The notes beneath the pieces were generated by a model that was not told the origin of the DNA, searched no databases, and worked only from the letters and a program-made list of their open reading frames with translations. From assembly GCA_002457605.1 (NCBI GenBank), contig NTJT01000007.1, positions 1-41,564 of the forward strand: DNA of 41,564 bases, given 5' to 3'. Positions 8,652 through 16,432 of this stretch are shown in pieces. The translations under genes and the position numbers were made by a program. The stretch is from Marine Group II euryarchaeote MED-G34 (GTDB taxonomy: Archaea > Thermoplasmatota > Poseidoniia > Poseidoniales > Thalassarchaeaceae). Numbering within the stretch: position 1 is the stretch's first letter; each line of letters begins with the position of its first letter.

Positions 8652-8690
8652 TCGTGAAGCCCTAGATTCGACTCGAAGTCTGACAAGCAA

Positions 8691-8700
8691 TGGTTATACC
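8691..8700. promoter_or_regulatory. Near-palindromic, possibly bidirectional TATA element
   Basis: TGGTTATACC lies between two divergent genes whose starts are at 8651 (minus) and 8744 (plus). The core GGTTATACC reads GGTATAACC on the other strand, so both orientations resemble an archaeal TATA box. It is about 40 bases from each start, leaving leaders of roughly 15-20 bases. The plus-strand gene also has a GGGGTGA Shine-Dalgarno-like sequence ending eight or nine bases before its ATG. The same ten bases occur at 13981-13990. Confidence 0.55.
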
Positions 8701-8743
8701 AATCCAAGCGCTGTCCGCGACCACCCATCGGGGTGACCGTGCC

Positions 8744-11323
8744 ATGTCAGAAGACCCTCCTCCTCTACCTCCTGGGTTCCCCCCTCCACCACCTCCTGGC
8801 TTTGGAGAGGCAGATGATGAGGACTCCGAGGAGGAGCAGATGCCACAGCCCCCGCCCCCTCCACCCGGCGTGATGGAACTCAAAGACAGGGAGATTGCCC
8901 CAGAATCTGAATCAGTCCCTGAAGTGCCTCCGCCGCCGCCTGGATTAGATTCCCCGCCGCCCCTTCCACTAGGCTTTAACGAGCCGAATGAGTCTAAACC
9001 AGAAGGCGTGCCAGAGGAAACCTCATCCTTGCAAGACTCACTCGCTGCTCTGAAGGATTCTGTCGAAGATGTTGCGGAGGAAGTCTTTGAAGCCGGCTCT
9101 GAAGTTGTTGGAGAACTCGCTATCGGCTCGGTCAGTAGTGCTGTAGATTCAGCTGTTGAAGGAATTGTAGAAGTTTCCAGTGAGATTGTCGACTCATCCA
9201 AAGAAATAGCCGAGACTCTGTCGAAGCCTGTTGTTGCAGTAGCAACCCATCCTCACTTGAGATCAGCAACTGAAGTGGACGCGATACCAGGAGACAAGCT
9301 GCACGCTACTCTGAGTGAGATTGAGACGTCGATGCTTAATCCAGATGGTTCGGTCAGGAGGCAGTCTATAGAAGGAGAGTTGATACTGAGGAATTCGAGC
9401 AAGAAGCACAGGGCTTGGGATATCGAGGTCCTGCTTTCCGCTACTGACTCCACGGACATCGGAGGTCGTTCAATCTCGGTACGCGAACTCGAAGCTACTG
9501 AGGAGACAGTGATTCCGTATTCGGCCAGTGGACCGAGGATGCTAGTCCTCAAGGAGATAATGGACACTAATCCCGAGAGAGATCAAGAGGATAGCCTGTC
9601 GCTGATATATTCTACAGAGCCCCAGGAGATTGAGATGCATATCGAGGTTCAGAACGTTTCTCCAGTACCTCTGCTTGAGGTAGAGGTTAGCAGGAACTTT
9701 CCGGAAAACTTCGACATTCCCGACGGCCAAGATTACAGTATCTCCGAATCGTCGATTTCATGGGATATAGGTAGACTGAATGTAGGGGAGAGCAGAACCC
9801 TTTCGCTTTCTCCAATGGTCACTACTAAAGGAGTAGAAAGGATATCTGCTGGAGTAGCCTCGGCCAACTTCTCTGCCGAAGCTGCGGTTTCGAGGGCCGA
9901 CTTCGACCGTGTATCTGGTTCAACACTGCATATGATGAGGGTGGATAAGGTAGAGGATGACCGCCCAGGGATATGGCACTGCAAATCAGTCTTTGAGAAT
10001 CGTTCTTCTTTCGTGGTCACTCTATCGGGAGTCACTGTTTGGCTATCGGGCAGAGATAATCCCATCCTAGATGTATCTGACCTCAGGCAGGACGTTCCGC
10101 CTGAAGGCAGCTGGAGTTCTATGGAGAAGAGAGTAGAGGCGGACACGCCAAGTTTCACACACGAGTTCCGTTCATCCATTCTCCCAAGAGTCTCAGTCAC
10201 TTCGACCGGCTCAATAGACCTCAAGGAGCAGGAGTTGACAGTTCTAGATGCTAGGCTGCTCAAGCAGTATGATAAATCCAGAATCAAGTCCTTCATATCG
10301 TCGGACTTGGAAGTAACAATCTCAATCGAGAACACAGGCTCAGCTCCAATCAACGTGATGCGACTACTCGACGACGTACCGGGTGTCTTTGAGCCCCCAA
10401 CCGAGTCCGAGGTAAGTATCGAGATAGAAAATACCGAACTGAATGAGGAGCAGTACCTCATTGAGGTCATTGATGGCATTCAGTTAGAAGAGAGGCTGAT
10501 ATCTCCTGATAACAACGGTAACAGCCTGAGAATTACAGTCGGGCGCTCGGCGCCGTTGGGTCTACAGCCCGGTAAGACGATGGTTTTGCGATACCCATTG
10601 CATGCTCCTGACCCCTCTCCTGCTAATGGCCTTCTGGCAGCACCAATCAGGGCTGATTTTGGTTCTGAGAAGTTCGGACCTGTAGCAACTAGAGAGGTTG
10701 CGAGACCACCGCAGTTGAGAGTGGTGCACCGCCGCCGCAACATCAGCACCGGCAAGGAGGTCTTCCCCGCAGGAAGCGCAGGCAGGTACGAGGTGCTATT
10801 GATGTTCATTAACAACTCTGATAGTGCCCTCGACGATCTTGTCCTGCACGATGTAGTCCCGGGGACTTTCTCCATCGAGAAGTCGACTGTTCGCTCCTCG
10901 GTTGATGGTGATCGGGACATAAAGATGGACAAGGAATCGGCCCCGGAGGGGACTCATGTGGAGTGGAGAGTAGGGAGAATCGAGCAAGGAGAGAGGATTG
11001 AGGTGACCTACGAGATACAGGGTGATCCTGAGTCAGAGTACAAGGTTTCTGATGCTCAAGATTTCCACGGTGCCACTTTCGGCGATGAGGTCGATGAGGA
11101 ACCCAATGTACCTGAATGGCTCGAGGAGCAGAGTCAGCCGGAGCCAGAACCAGAGCCGGAGCCGGAGCCGGAGCCAGAACCAGAGCCGGAGCCGGAGCCA
11201 GAACCAGAACCAGAGCCGGAGCCGGAGCCAGAACCAGAGCCCGAGGGTGAGGTATGTCCAATCTGCGGTTCTGAGGCCCAGATAGGTGCCTCTGTTTGCA
11301 TCGTCTGTAGCTATTCATTTTGA
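8744..11323 (+). CDS. Large multidomain protein: Pro-rich N-terminus, DUF11-like repeats, Pro-Glu linker, zinc ribbon
   Basis: A protein of 859 residues. Residues 1-80 contain four Pro-rich blocks ([21 protein letters not shown] and PPPLPLGF) in an acidic background. Residues about 90-160 are Ala/Ser/Val/Glu-rich and probably helical. The main body has several beta-rich segments resembling DUF11/CARDB modules, for example [16 protein letters not shown] followed by [15 protein letters not shown], and later [11 protein letters not shown] followed by [16 protein letters not shown]. Eighteen Pro-Glu dipeptides follow, then a zinc ribbon CPICGSE...CIVCSYSF. There is no signal peptide or membrane helix, so the DUF11-like modules, usually extracellular, appear to be cytoplasmic or exported by another route. 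The start is set by the GGGGTGA sequence before 8744. Function unknown; a scaffold is a guess. Confidence 0.85.
11138..11245 (+). repeat. Eighteen-unit Pro-Glu hexamer repeat
   Basis: Eighteen tandem CCN-GAR hexamers encode (PE)18 inside the preceding gene. The units follow a loosely periodic order of CCGGAG and CCAGAA or CCAGAG, suggesting expansion by slippage or unequal exchange of a larger unit of about 24-30 bases. In protein such a run is a stiff, extended, strongly acidic spacer, here separating the beta modules from the C-terminal zinc ribbon. The length probably varies between strains. Confidence 0.9.
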
Positions 11324-12861: not shown

Positions 12862-13839
12862 ATGGGCGAAAGTAACTTCTGGGAAATCTCCGAAGCTTCC
12901 ACGAATCCTGGATTCGGATGTATTCCTAGTGAGCGCTCGCTTGATGAACTGCTATCGGCAGGTGTGATACTGGTGGATAAGCCTAGAGGGCCTTCGAGCC
13001 ACCAGCTGGCGGCTTGGGCCAGAGAGACATTGGGAATCACAAGACTGGGTCACGGAGGTACTCTCGACCCGTTTGCAACAGGACTTCTGACTATACTGTG
13101 TGGCAAGGCCACTAGGCTCACTGAAATAGTCCTCAAGGGTGACAAGAGGTATGTCGGAGTGTTACGATTTGGCAGGGATGTTCCAGATGACGAACTCGAA
13201 TCTACCTTATCTCTACTCAATGGTGTGATTTACAATGTCCCTCCTCTTGAGTCCGCTGTCAAGATACAAGTCCGGACTCGCACTATTCATTCTTTGAAGA
13301 TGCTAGAATCTGACACTGACTCGCGCATAGCCGCCTTCGAAGTCTCGTGCAGTGCCGGGACATACATCAGGACTCTCGCCAAGGATATCGGATTGATGCT
13401 AGATACAAAATGTGAGCTGACCGAGCTGCACCGAGACAGAACAGGTCCATTTGACCAGACTATGGCTTGCTCCATGCAGCAGCTTGCCGATGCGGCATTT
13501 CTGCACAGAGAGCATGGCGATGAGAGCGCTTTAGTAAAGCTCATTGCCCCGGTCGAGGTCTTGCTCTCAGGTCTGCCCTCTATCACTGTAAAAGACGGCG
13601 CAGCAGCAGCTCTTTCTCACGGGGCACCTCTGGCGAGCCCAGGTGTTGTCAGAGCACAGAAGGGAGTATCAGAGGGTTCCAATGTACTTGTGCAGAGCAT
13701 CAAGGGCGAAGCGGTCTCCGTAGCTAAATTGACAGTCGATACCGATTCTCTTCCTAAAATGAGGACCGGAGAAGTCGCAGTTGCTCATGCTGTAATGATG
13801 GAGCCAGGAACGTACCCACAGAGTTGGTCTAAAGAATGA
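12862..13839 (+). CDS. cbf5: tRNA/rRNA pseudouridine synthase Cbf5 (dyskerin family)
   Basis: A 325-residue protein of the TruB/Cbf5 family. The catalytic motif GHGGTLDPFATGLL contains the catalytic Asp at residue 69. It is preceded by the VILVDKPRGPSSHQLAAW segment and followed by the KRYVGVLRFG and SAGTYIRTLAKDIG motifs. The final 90 residues (from about ITVKDGAAAALSHGAPL) match a PUA RNA-binding domain. The extended N-terminus, PUA domain and neighbours mark it as archaeal Cbf5. That enzyme works alone on tRNA U55 or within H/ACA guide RNPs with Nop10, Gar1 and L7Ae; none of those partners are in the window. It follows cmk by eight bases. Confidence 0.93.
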   Translation: MGESNFWEISEASTNPGFGCIPSERSLDELLSAGVILVDKPRGPSSHQLAAWARETLGITRLGHGGTLDPFATGLLTILCGKATRLTEIVLKGDKRYVGVLRFGRDVPDDELESTLSLLNGVIYNVPPLESAVKIQVRTRTIHSLKMLESDTDSRIAAFEVSCSAGTYIRTLAKDIGLMLDTKCELTELHRDRTGPFDQTMACSMQQLADAAFLHREHGDESALVKLIAPVEVLLSGLPSITVKDGAAAALSHGAPLASPGVVRAQKGVSEGSNVLVQSIKGEAVSVAKLTVDTDSLPKMRTGEVAVAHAVMMEPGTYPQSWSKE

Positions 13840-13843
13840 GGGC

Positions 13844-13960
13844 TCAGGCCATCTCATGTTCTTCGTAGACCCACTCTTCTGTCTCCAAACGAATTTTCAG
13901 TTTCATCATCTCAGTCACACACCACCGGCTCAGACACCATGAAGCACCCTTGCGCGGCAT
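13844..13960 (-). CDS. 38-residue leaderless microprotein
   Basis: A minus-strand frame of 38 codons plus TGA. It starts MPRKGASWCLSRWC and ends ETEEWVYEEHEMA. It has a basic, Cys/Trp-rich N-terminal half (Cys 9 and Cys 14, Trp 8 and 13) and an acidic, probably helical C-terminal half. No known family comes to mind. The evidence for coding is positional: the TATA-like TGGTTATACC at 13981-13990 centres about 25 bases upstream of the ATG, exactly the spacing for a leaderless archaeal transcript. The frame nearly fills the otherwise empty interval after cbf5, stopping four bases beyond the convergent cbf5 stop. A small metal-binding or regulatory protein is possible. It could instead be the 5' part of a noncoding RNA. 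Confidence 0.45.
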   Translation of the reverse strand: MPRKGASWCLSRWCVTEMMKLKIRLETEEWVYEEHEMA

Positions 13961-13980: not shown

Positions 13981-13990
13981 GGTATAACCA
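13981..13990 (-). promoter_or_regulatory. TATA box for the 38-residue microprotein gene
   Basis: On the minus strand the sequence reads TGGTTATACC, identical to the divergent promoter element at 8691-8700. It is preceded by a purine-rich stretch (GGGAA) in the position of a TFB-recognition element. Its centre lies about 25 bases before the ATG at 13960. Confidence 0.5.
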
Positions 13991-14037
13991 TTCCCTGAAA
14001 ATCACCGATTATCGGCCAGATAGGGGGTCGGAGGTGC

Positions 14038-14056: not shown

Positions 14057-16432
14057 CTACTTCTTGTGATTGAATGGCTTGCGTACTCTGTTCGGGCTGA
14101 AATATAGGGCCGTGAGTGAGATTAGTACCACTCCTACGGAGATGAAGACCAAAGCTGGACCTCTATCTAAGGAGTCTATGATGCCCCTTTCTTCATCTTC
14201 GCTTTCGGACACGTCTAGGACGACAGTACGGTCGTTGTTACTCTCTGAGGTCTCCGCTATCGAACCTGTTCCGTCTGCTGACACCTCGATAGTCAGAGTT
14301 TCACCATCTCTCACCACCTGTGCGTCACAGACGGCCGCACCGAGTCCTCCGGACTCAATGTGATCAATCATTTTGGCGCCCACTAAGATTCCGTCCACTC
14401 TACACTTGACATCAACAGCATCAGCGCCTCCACGACCCTCGTTCCTGATGTATGCATGAATCTCGATGATGTCGCCATCGACTAGATTCGTCACACTGAC
14501 ACCATCTCTCCTCACATCTACCATCTCAACCAGTAAGTCGGGTTTCGCGGTCACGATGACCTCTATGTTCTGAGAAATCTCATTAGTACCGTCACTTATT
14601 GAAATCTCTACTGAGTGCGATCCGGAATCGACGGGAGTCAGCACTAGGTCTCCCGATGCGTCGAAAGTTGCCCACGATCTACTGGTTCTCAGTATCAGTG
14701 ATTCAGTGTCTGGATCAGTGATTGTTAGATCAACTACCATAGTCTGTCCCAGTTCTATGTAGACGGTCAGTGGCAAACCATCGAGTACTGGAGGGTCTTC
14801 ATCCGGAGTGACTGTTACTAACATCGAATCAGACCAAGAGTTCCCAAGTGCATCGCTGACAACAACTTCGATGCTGGCCTCGCCCCAAGCATCTCGGGCC
14901 GGCTGTATCCTGATATATTGGCCAACCACACTCGCTTCGATAATCCCTGAATCGGAACTCACTGCACTGAGGACGAGGTCCTCTGGAGCAGTAAGGTCGT
15001 CACTGCATCTGACATCCATAGGAAGGTGGACTCCGACATCGTCCTCATTGAACGACATGTCCTCAAGCCCGAGGCATTCGGGGTCATAGTCCCAATGCAC
15101 GGAATATCCACCGGTTATGGTCATAGATTGGATGTGAACTACGGTGGATTCGGCTGTTCCGTTTGATGACCATTGGAACCTTGAAGCGACACCCACCGAC
15201 ATATCGCCCCCTTGTACTGGCAGTGCGTGCCCCACAGGAACGTCCACTGAGAAGGCGCCGTACTGGAGTGGTCTACTGTCCACCAGACTGTTGCCAACGG
15301 CGAACCTGATGTAACTGGTATCCGCTAAGCCGCCAAGTGCCCCTGAGACATATCCTTGAACCACCAGATGTGGGTCGTTGACATCAATTCTAGCACCTGA
15401 GATGCACCCATCCGCGATTTCAATCTTAATCTGCTGAAGGGAATGAGATGTGTCCAACAATTCCCCCGATTGCATCTCGATGTAGTCTCCATCTAAATCA
15501 TCGGGCAGTGCCCATATCGTGTGGTTGCCTGAGCCGAATACGTGTATCCTGCCCAACTCCTGCAGTGGAGGCACTTCTACATCAAACGTCCACTCTCCAG
15601 TTACAGGCCCTTCAGGAGAGAGTCCACATGATTCCTGGGAGAGTCCCGAGATTGCCCCATCATATGGGCTGATGTCAATTACGGGGGAGTTAACACCGTT
15701 GACCGTGTTGGTGGCCTTGACAGTTTCGAAAGAGTACCAAGGCTGGTGGTACTTCACTCGGAGGCCCACTGCATCCACCCTGACTTCGGAGTCATCGGTG
15801 GTTCCAGTGGATACGTAATCGATGGTGAACTGAGTGTCCTCCAAGGAAGGCCAGTCGGCAAGGGCCAACCCGTCGAGTGATAGGACCACTGGATTGGCCA
15901 TCCTGTATATCGGCCCAAATGTTCGAGCGTAAGTAACGACTAACTTATCTGAGCCGTGATTCTGCAGGATGACTCTGACGGAGTCCTGATTCAAGGTATC
16001 TGGAATCGAGAAGTGTAGCACTAGAGAGACATTAGCGACCAGCATCCCATGCAGTCCGCTGAAATCATAACCAGCCATCGTGATGTTAGGTCCCTTTGAC
16101 CAAGTGTAGTAAGAATCCGGCTCTCCTAAGGTCGCATTGGAATTGGTGATACTGTTTGAGGCCCATGAGGTGGAATACTGGAAATTGTCCGGCCTACTGT
16201 GAGTGAAAGACAATTCTCCATCGGCTACCATGCCCAACGAGTAATCTGCTGCATTGTTGGAGAATCCGGTATTACTGGATATCTGCCACTCCTCTGAGTC
16301 GGTGAAATCACCAGCTTCCAGCAGCTCTGCATCTTCGGCCCCAATCACAGTGTCGGCCACGGCGAATGGCACTAGGGGTGCCAAGCTAGTCACAAGTAAG
16401 ATGACGAGCACGACTCCCGAACGAGTCCTCAT
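14057..16432 (-). CDS. Secreted, membrane-anchored protein with CARDB and Ig-like domains
   Basis: A 791-residue protein with an N-terminal signal peptide (residues 1-26, VVLVILLVTSLAPLVPFAVA core). A single C-terminal membrane helix lies at about 764-780, with a basic tail after it. Between them are beta-rich regions. Around residues 535-625 is a cadherin/Ig-like segment (PVLDGLPLTVYIELGQ... VEISISDGTNEISQ). Residues about 630-740 form a CARDB module (PDLLVEMVDVRR... AYIRNEGRGGADAVDV... SIAETSESNNDRTVVLDV). The architecture is that of an extracellular protein held at the membrane by its C-terminus. No catalytic motif is visible. Adhesion or cell-envelope structure is the likely role, but this is inferred. 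It is transcribed away from tRNA-His and ends just before a T6 terminator. Confidence 0.85.
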   Translation of the reverse strand: MRTRSGVVLVILLVTSLAPLVPFAVADTVIGAEDAELLEAGDFTDSEEWQISSNTGFSNNAADYSLGMVADGELSFTHSRPDNFQYSTSWASNSITNSNATLGEPDSYYTWSKGPNITMAGYDFSGLHGMLVANVSLVLHFSIPDTLNQDSVRVILQNHGSDKLVVTYARTFGPIYRMANPVVLSLDGLALADWPSLEDTQFTIDYVSTGTTDDSEVRVDAVGLRVKYHQPWYSFETVKATNTVNGVNSPVIDISPYDGAISGLSQESCGLSPEGPVTGEWTFDVEVPPLQELGRIHVFGSGNHTIWALPDDLDGDYIEMQSGELLDTSHSLQQIKIEIADGCISGARIDVNDPHLVVQGYVSGALGGLADTSYIRFAVGNSLVDSRPLQYGAFSVDVPVGHALPVQGGDMSVGVASRFQWSSNGTAESTVVHIQSMTITGGYSVHWDYDPECLGLEDMSFNEDDVGVHLPMDVRCSDDLTAPEDLVLSAVSSDSGIIEASVVGQYIRIQPARDAWGEASIEVVVSDALGNSWSDSMLVTVTPDEDPPVLDGLPLTVYIELGQTMVVDLTITDPDTESLILRTSRSWATFDASGDLVLTPVDSGSHSVEISISDGTNEISQNIEVIVTAKPDLLVEMVDVRRDGVSVTNLVDGDIIEIHAYIRNEGRGGADAVDVKCRVDGILVGAKMIDHIESGGLGAAVCDAQVVRDGETLTIEVSADGTGSIAETSESNNDRTVVLDVSESEDEERGIIDSLDRGPALVFISVGVVLISLTALYFSPNRVRKPFNHKK

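What the first reader, a model, noticed from the sequence alone, without database searches (positions are those of the whole stretch)
13844..13960. Leaderless 38-residue microprotein convergent with cbf5
An uninterrupted 38-codon frame begins about 25 bases from a good TATA box and fills the space after cbf5. It has a Cys/Trp-rich basic half and an acidic helical half. It is too short for ordinary gene finding and matches no family I know. The TATA spacing predicts transcription starting at the ATG itself.
Basis: partly seen in the sequence, partly recalled or inferred. Interest (0 to 1): 0.65.

Follow-up and report, generated by a model that had tools for sequence, protein, structure and literature searches.

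The report
Tiny conserved archaeal protein, shared with viruses
Behind the gene cbf5, a whole order of abundant ocean archaea keeps a gene for a protein of only 21 amino acids, and dozens of archaeal-type viruses carry their own copies, so something this small seems to do a job important enough to keep and to copy.

Summary
Only its last 21 codons (ATG 13909 to stop 13844, minus strand; MMKLKIRLETEEWVYEEHEMA) are a gene; the upstream 17 'codons' are a ~50-base leader. The 21 codons evolve as protein (pN/pS 0.22, this frame only; upstream 0.98). The gene lies behind cbf5 in 57 of 57 loci and was found in 197 of 223 Poseidoniales genomes; the other 26 lack cbf5 in the assembly (25) or have it cut at a contig end (1). 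It is absent from MGIII and the rest of the phylum, and no Pfam, NCBIfam or PDB sequence matches. AlphaFold gives a beta-hairpin. In the sister family its leader is a three-way-junction RNA (13 of 16 pairs covary). Unexpectedly, about 45-50 IMG/VR virus contigs carry the peptide as a free-standing 20-28 aa gene, away from cbf5 and without that RNA; many look like archaeal magrovirus-type viruses (PolB, thermosome). The peptide is therefore the functional unit and acts in trans. Best guess: it docks on a conserved cell protein and viruses mimic it. The partner is unknown.

The parts
13844..13909 (-). 21-codon microprotein gene MMKLKIRLETEEWVYEEHEMA, ATG 13909-13907, stop 13846-13844
   Evidence: start, frame and stop conserved in 57 genomes; pN/pS 0.22 in this frame only; profile hits in almost all Poseidoniales
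   Evidence: pN/pS 0.98 across 57 genomes and stops in relatives; a weak 6-pair helix in the window's relatives, no excess stability in the window itself; the equivalent leader in Poseidoniaceae is a covarying three-way junction
13916..13926 (-). GGTGGTGTGTG, ribosome-binding-like stretch 6 bases before the ATG
   Evidence: TGGTGTGTG nearly invariant in the aligned relatives
13981..13989 (-). TATA box GGTTATACC
   Evidence: TTATACC invariant in 11 relatives; centre about 25 bases before 13960
14007..14017 (-). second conserved upstream element GGCCGATAATC, about 28 bases before the TATA box
   Evidence: GATAATC invariant in 11 relatives; the only match in the window within one mismatch, but 1.3 expected by chance
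12862..13839 (+). cbf5 (tRNA/rRNA pseudouridine synthase), convergent neighbour in all relatives
   Evidence: tblastn beside the microprotein in 57 of 57 loci
14057..16432 (-). large secreted CARDB-type protein, upstream neighbour on the same strand
   Evidence: tblastn in 56 of 57 loci; L051 is cut short upstream

Best explanation
A protein-coding gene for a free-standing, soluble, acidic beta-hairpin microprotein of 21 residues, universal in Poseidoniales wherever its locus is assembled and carried as a sporadic accessory gene by archaeal-type viruses. Shown: coding, 21-residue length, order-wide conservation with fixed synteny, viral copies detached from cbf5 and from the leader RNA. Inferred: it is made from a leadered mRNA and acts in trans as a peptide whose conserved hairpin (L-x-I-R-I-E-T-[ED]-E-[WY]-[VI]-[YF]-E-E) docks on a conserved host protein, probably by adding strands to an existing sheet, as a subunit or modulator. 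Its dose is set by a structured leader; viruses supply or mimic it during infection to control the same partner.
For: 57/60 relatives; 197/223 Poseidoniales strong, and all 26 others lack cbf5 or have it at a contig end; pN/pS 0.22 in frame only, with pS 0.295 against pN 0.005 among eight close relatives; fixed neighbours. Viral copies: about 42 of 45 first-scan contigs show the motif including residues 4-8, which the scan pattern did not fix; SD-like site plus ATG in 36/39, lengths mostly 20-28 aa; no cbf5 or CARDB neighbour and no leader RNA. Further variants. Archaeal hallmarks: Cpn60_TCP1 in 20/38 records (three examined are group II), PolB, PCNA in one. AlphaFold hairpin, strands 20-26 and 31-36, block means 77 and 71. 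Covarying leader in the sister family.
Against: No partner identified, no expression or peptide data. AlphaFold confidence is only moderate (mean 58.6 over 38 residues). Hosts of the virus contigs are inferred, not shown. Only 2 of 25 thermosome-bearing virus contigs outside the seed set carry even a weak copy, so it is not essential to such viruses. pN/pS of viral copies (0.14) is biased low because the hits were chosen by a motif.
Confidence: 0.45

Rival explanations
1. One reading: a 38-residue protein on a leaderless mRNA starting at 13960.
For: TATA spacing fits a transcript start near 13960; the frame is open in most of the closest relatives.
Against: Upstream codons have pN/pS 0.98 overall (pN 0.115, pS 0.230 among eight close relatives, against 0.005 and 0.295 for the core); ATG lost in L007, in-frame stops in L008 and many others.
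Confidence: 0.03
2. A cis-acting leader peptide or attenuator that senses translation to control a downstream gene.
For: Short length and structured leader; in viruses it often sits just before, or overlaps by ATGA, another gene.
Against: In Poseidoniales the next gene downstream is cbf5 on the opposite strand in 57/57 loci; viral downstream genes are mostly unrelated to each other.
Confidence: 0.04
3. The conserved unit is an RNA (riboswitch-like or small RNA) and the frame is incidental.
For: The Poseidoniaceae leader is a three-way junction with 13 of 16 covarying pairs, 0/500 shuffles.
Against: The peptide's codons vary synonymously; the three-way junction is found only in Poseidoniaceae, and viruses carry the peptide without it; no Rfam match.
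Confidence: 0.05
4. A lineage-specific part of the H/ACA ribonucleoprotein working with Cbf5.
For: Always next to cbf5; N-terminus superficially like that of Nop10.
Against: A normal Nop10 exists in 57/60 genomes; MGIII has cbf5 without the peptide; viral copies occur with no cbf5 nearby.
Confidence: 0.06
5. A host-virus conflict peptide: a host guard against, or a viral inhibitor of, an infection response; the host copy is a domesticated viral gene or the reverse.
For: Sporadic presence in diverse viruses, near SNF2- or XPD-type helicases; second, virus-like variants in a few MGII genome contigs (L111, L264).
Against: Defence genes are normally patchy, whereas the host copy is order-wide with fixed synteny under strong purifying selection.
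Confidence: 0.2

Closest known systems
Very short conserved prokaryotic microproteins (for example eL41 of ribosomes, CydX/CcoM-type subunits; from own knowledge, CcoM also in the abstract of PMC10433244)
   Same: Tens of residues, stand-alone gene, strongly conserved, missed by gene finders
   Different: Those are basic (eL41) or membrane helices; this one is acidic, soluble, a predicted beta-hairpin, limited to one archaeal order plus viruses; no match to any PDB chain, Pfam or NCBIfam model
Nop10 (PF04135)
   Same: Small archaeal protein linked with Cbf5, similar N-terminal MKxKIR (own knowledge)
   Different: Nop10 is longer (52-position profile) and is present separately in the same genomes
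Leader peptides / upstream ORFs with structured leaders
   Same: Short ORF, structured 5' RNA
   Different: No downstream gene on the same strand in the host; the peptide is the terminal product
Magroviruses (order Magrovirales; PMC12999244, PMC10768690)
   Same: Some virus contigs with the peptide carry PolB and look like archaeal head-tail viruses of this kind
   Different: No report of such a peptide was found in the papers held; only a minority of such contigs carry it

Membership tests
Protein-coding microprotein | Codon-wise purifying selection in one frame | tested here: met
   pN/pS 0.22 in frame, above 1 in the other two sense frames
Protein-coding microprotein | Conserved start and stop | tested here: met
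   ATG/GTG/TTG start at this place in 55 of 57 loci and stop in all; the two g10 genomes can use a TTG two codons upstream
Protein-coding microprotein | Peptide or ribosome footprint detected | not testable with these tools
   no proteome or ribosome profiling data on hand
Leaderless mRNA | Translation start at the transcript start (TATA centre ~25 bases before the start codon) | tested here: not met
   conserved ATG 13909 lies ~76 bases from the TATA box; the ATG at 13960 is not conserved
Nop10 (PF04135) | Profile match / replaces Nop10 | tested here: not met
   no Pfam match; Nop10 present elsewhere in 57/60 genomes
Attenuator leader peptide | Regulated gene downstream on the same strand | tested here: not met
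   convergent cbf5 downstream in 57/57
Known Rfam leader / riboswitch | Covariance-model match | tested here: not met
   no match near the gene at gathering score or in one Poseidoniaceae leader at E<=5
Chaperonin cofactor | Co-occurs with viral thermosome | tested here: not met
   20/38 peptide-bearing records have a chaperonin, but only 2/25 further chaperonin-bearing contigs have even a weak copy
Peptide docking on a sheet of a host protein | Physical partner | not tested
   hairpin predicted; no complex prediction available

The most novel reading that the evidence does not exclude
A 21-residue beta-hairpin is an order-universal regulator or subunit of a core machine in Poseidoniales, dosed by a structured leader RNA, and several unrelated archaeal virus lineages have independently captured it to take control of that machine: one of the smallest host proteins known to be copied by viruses.
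Probability: 0.4. Interest if true: 0.85.

Novelty: new variant of a known kind. Interest (0 to 1): 0.74.

Why it matters
[quoted passage not shown] A 21-residue gene kept wherever the locus is assembled, and copied by viruses, marks a process important enough to conserve and to hijack, and one that standard annotation cannot see. It gives a short, exact bait for finding that process and a possible sequence marker for viruses of these archaea. The covarying leader adds a candidate new archaeal regulatory RNA.

Tried and rejected
38-aa leaderless protein (codon test). Nop10 substitute. Functional tie to thermosomes: 20/38 records looked suggestive but only 2/25 independent thermosome-bearing contigs carry even a weak copy. 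Homologues in other Thermoplasmatota: only short partial hits, E >= 0.03. INPHARED tblastn with the 21-mer found nothing, but low-complexity filtering may hide it. Named Poseidoniales viruses (PP497040, ON649702, OR863078) are not held. Two virus proteins found no annotated relatives; SNF2 helicase hits are bacterial phages at 36% identity or less, uninformative. MCM gave only weak sub-threshold matches. The three-way junction model does not match the window's own leader. PDB profile hits to 'KIRIETGEW' in RSV integrase are 9-residue chance matches. Fusion of the motif to larger proteins: none in 1.78 Mb of virus DNA.

Full report
What is there. The minus strand 13960-13844 reads MPRKGASWCLSRWCVTEMMKLKIRLETEEWVYEEHEMA*. 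tblastn of the 38 residues over 60 relatives found a match in 57, in all 18 genera. When the matches are lined up, only the last 21 residues are shared. The protein starts at ATG 13909: ATG is used in 52 of 57 loci, GTG or TTG in three, and in the two g10 genomes a TTG lies two codons upstream. The stop is always at the same place.

Coding test. Over the 57 genomes residues 4-21 have pS 0.88 and pN 0.19 (ratio 0.22). The two other sense frames give ratios above 1. Changes fall at codon positions 1/2/3 with rates 0.26/0.15/0.56. L4, R7, E9 and E16 never change as residues, although all six leucine and all six arginine codons occur. So the gene is 21 codons, and the Cys/Trp-rich half is leader sequence read as protein.

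Distribution. In all 57 loci the gene lies tail-to-tail with cbf5 and downstream of a CARDB-type secreted protein (56 of 57; the remaining locus, L051, is short). A profile (A2) searched over 244 genomes of the class gave strong matches in 197 of 223 Poseidoniales (my count from the table). The other 26 were checked for cbf5: 25 have none at E <= 1e-10, and in one (G219) cbf5 ends at the contig edge. These are incomplete assemblies, so the absence is of the locus, not of the gene. The MGIII genomes of the same class lack it (one weak chance-level match, E 0.29), also beside their cbf5, and a 390-genome sample of the phylum adds only chance-level partial hits. The window's family is Thalassarchaeaceae and the sister family Poseidoniaceae; six loci were matched by sequence to titled GenBank records, some titled at family or genus level. 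No Pfam, NCBIfam or PDB match was found, and peptide strings occur in no held paper.

Promoter and leader. Eleven relatives share TTATACC at 13981-13989 and an upstream GATAATC element at 14007-14017. By the usual archaeal spacing (own knowledge) transcription should begin near 13958-13960, giving a ~50-base leader, so the mRNA is probably not leaderless. In Poseidoniaceae the leader is a three-way junction: 16 pairs, 13 with compensatory change, 96.5% of cells paired, 0 of 500 shuffles as good, and all slid versions far worse. It is essentially single-copy per genome (two weak extra matches, E >= 0.03, in one genome) and tied to this gene, and it is not in Rfam. In the window's own family the model does not match; there is a small helix with two covarying pairs and no excess stability in the window, so for the window itself leader structure is only suggested. 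In four loci of the family (L026, L030, L035, L038) the predicted fold is more stable than shuffles, z -2.0 to -2.7.

Virus copies. A degenerate pattern for E9-E17 was scanned against IMG/VR: 45 stretches. All but about three are genuine: residues 4-8, which the pattern did not constrain, again read L-x-I-R-I or close, and a stop usually follows within a few codons. A second, shifted pattern added variants such as MMKLVLRVETEEYIFERWNYA, and a profile search two more of the type MKNTHLVIKIETEEYIYWECSEPDYTE. In 36 of 39 the chosen ATG follows a Shine-Dalgarno-like site, and products are mostly 20-28 residues. In a few contigs the motif ends or begins a somewhat longer small ORF (L255 with a CxxC-type N-terminus, L236, L222/L261). 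In 1.78 Mb of further virus DNA no new occurrence, and no fusion to a large protein, was found. None of the virus loci has cbf5 or the CARDB gene, and none has the leader RNA.

Which viruses. 20 of 38 records carry Cpn60_TCP1; three that were examined are closest to archaeal thermosomes. PolB occurs in two of the contigs sampled and PCNA in one. Phage-type capsid and portal matches occur too. This is the character of archaeal tailed viruses; magroviruses of Poseidoniales encode PolB and a replisome (PMC12999244, PMC10768690). Hosts were not shown, and some records may come from viruses of other archaea. Carriage is sporadic: 2 of 25 other thermosome-bearing contigs have even a weak copy. Neighbours are helicases (SNF2, XPD type), a pyrimidine-dimer glycosylase-like protein and many small unknowns, typical of early or replication regions (inference).

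How it probably works. AlphaFold on the 38-residue frame with 33 rows predicts strands 20-26 and 31-36, a hairpin, at about pLDDT 70-77, and disorder before residue 17. The alternation L-K-I-R-L-E and W-V-Y-E-E fits a two-stranded ribbon with one hydrophobic and one charged face. Such a peptide is unlikely to hold a catalytic site; the simplest mechanism is docking on a partner protein. Because viruses keep the peptide without the RNA or the neighbours, the peptide itself acts in trans. A host-universal peptide also carried by viruses suggests that the partner is a core machine that viruses want to modulate. The partner is not identified; this step is inference.

Rivals. Leader-peptide attenuation fails because no gene lies downstream on the same strand. 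An RNA-only function fails on codon evolution and on the virus copies. A Cbf5 cofactor is unlikely because Nop10 is present, MGIII Cbf5 does without the peptide, and the virus copies are away from cbf5. A conflict (guard or inhibitor) peptide remains possible.

Limits. pN/pS among virus copies (0.14) is biased by motif selection. The held literature is open-access only.

Noticed in passing
L055 2985-3059 and 21 other Poseidoniaceae loci (alignment A5): The 5' leader of the microprotein gene is a three-way-junction RNA with 13 of 16 covarying pairs, essentially single copy per genome and absent from Rfam: a candidate new archaeal regulatory RNA.
   Followed up: yes
L219-L263, L273-L280, L405, L406 (IMG/VR): About 45-50 archaeal-type virus contigs encode the peptide, in several sequence types (EEY, EEW, ERW, YWE endings).
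   Followed up: yes
L264 (G113:C13) and L111: Two MGII genome contigs hold a second, virus-like variant away from cbf5 (LLFRLETEEYIFEQWDL, LVFKIETEEYVFEEWII): possible provirus or virus contig binned with the host.
   Followed up: partly
L255 5500-5800 region: A virus ORF of about 61 aa with two CxxC motifs whose last 20 residues are the peptide: a natural fusion that may hint at its partner or use.
   Followed up: no
window 14007-14017 (-): GGCCGATAATC element invariant in its core among relatives, about 28 bases upstream of the TATA box; perhaps a regulator site. A GGATAAC element lies upstream of the leader in Poseidoniaceae too.
   Followed up: partly
window 11134-11270: The protein 8690-11323 (+) holds a long PEPEPE... 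repeat before a zinc-ribbon-like tail; the repeat is open in other frames too.
   Followed up: no
L296 7000-8493, L285 5815-7323, L287 14962-16458: Virus-encoded group II chaperonins close to archaeal thermosomes, common in this kind of contig (146 relatives in the collection).
   Followed up: partly
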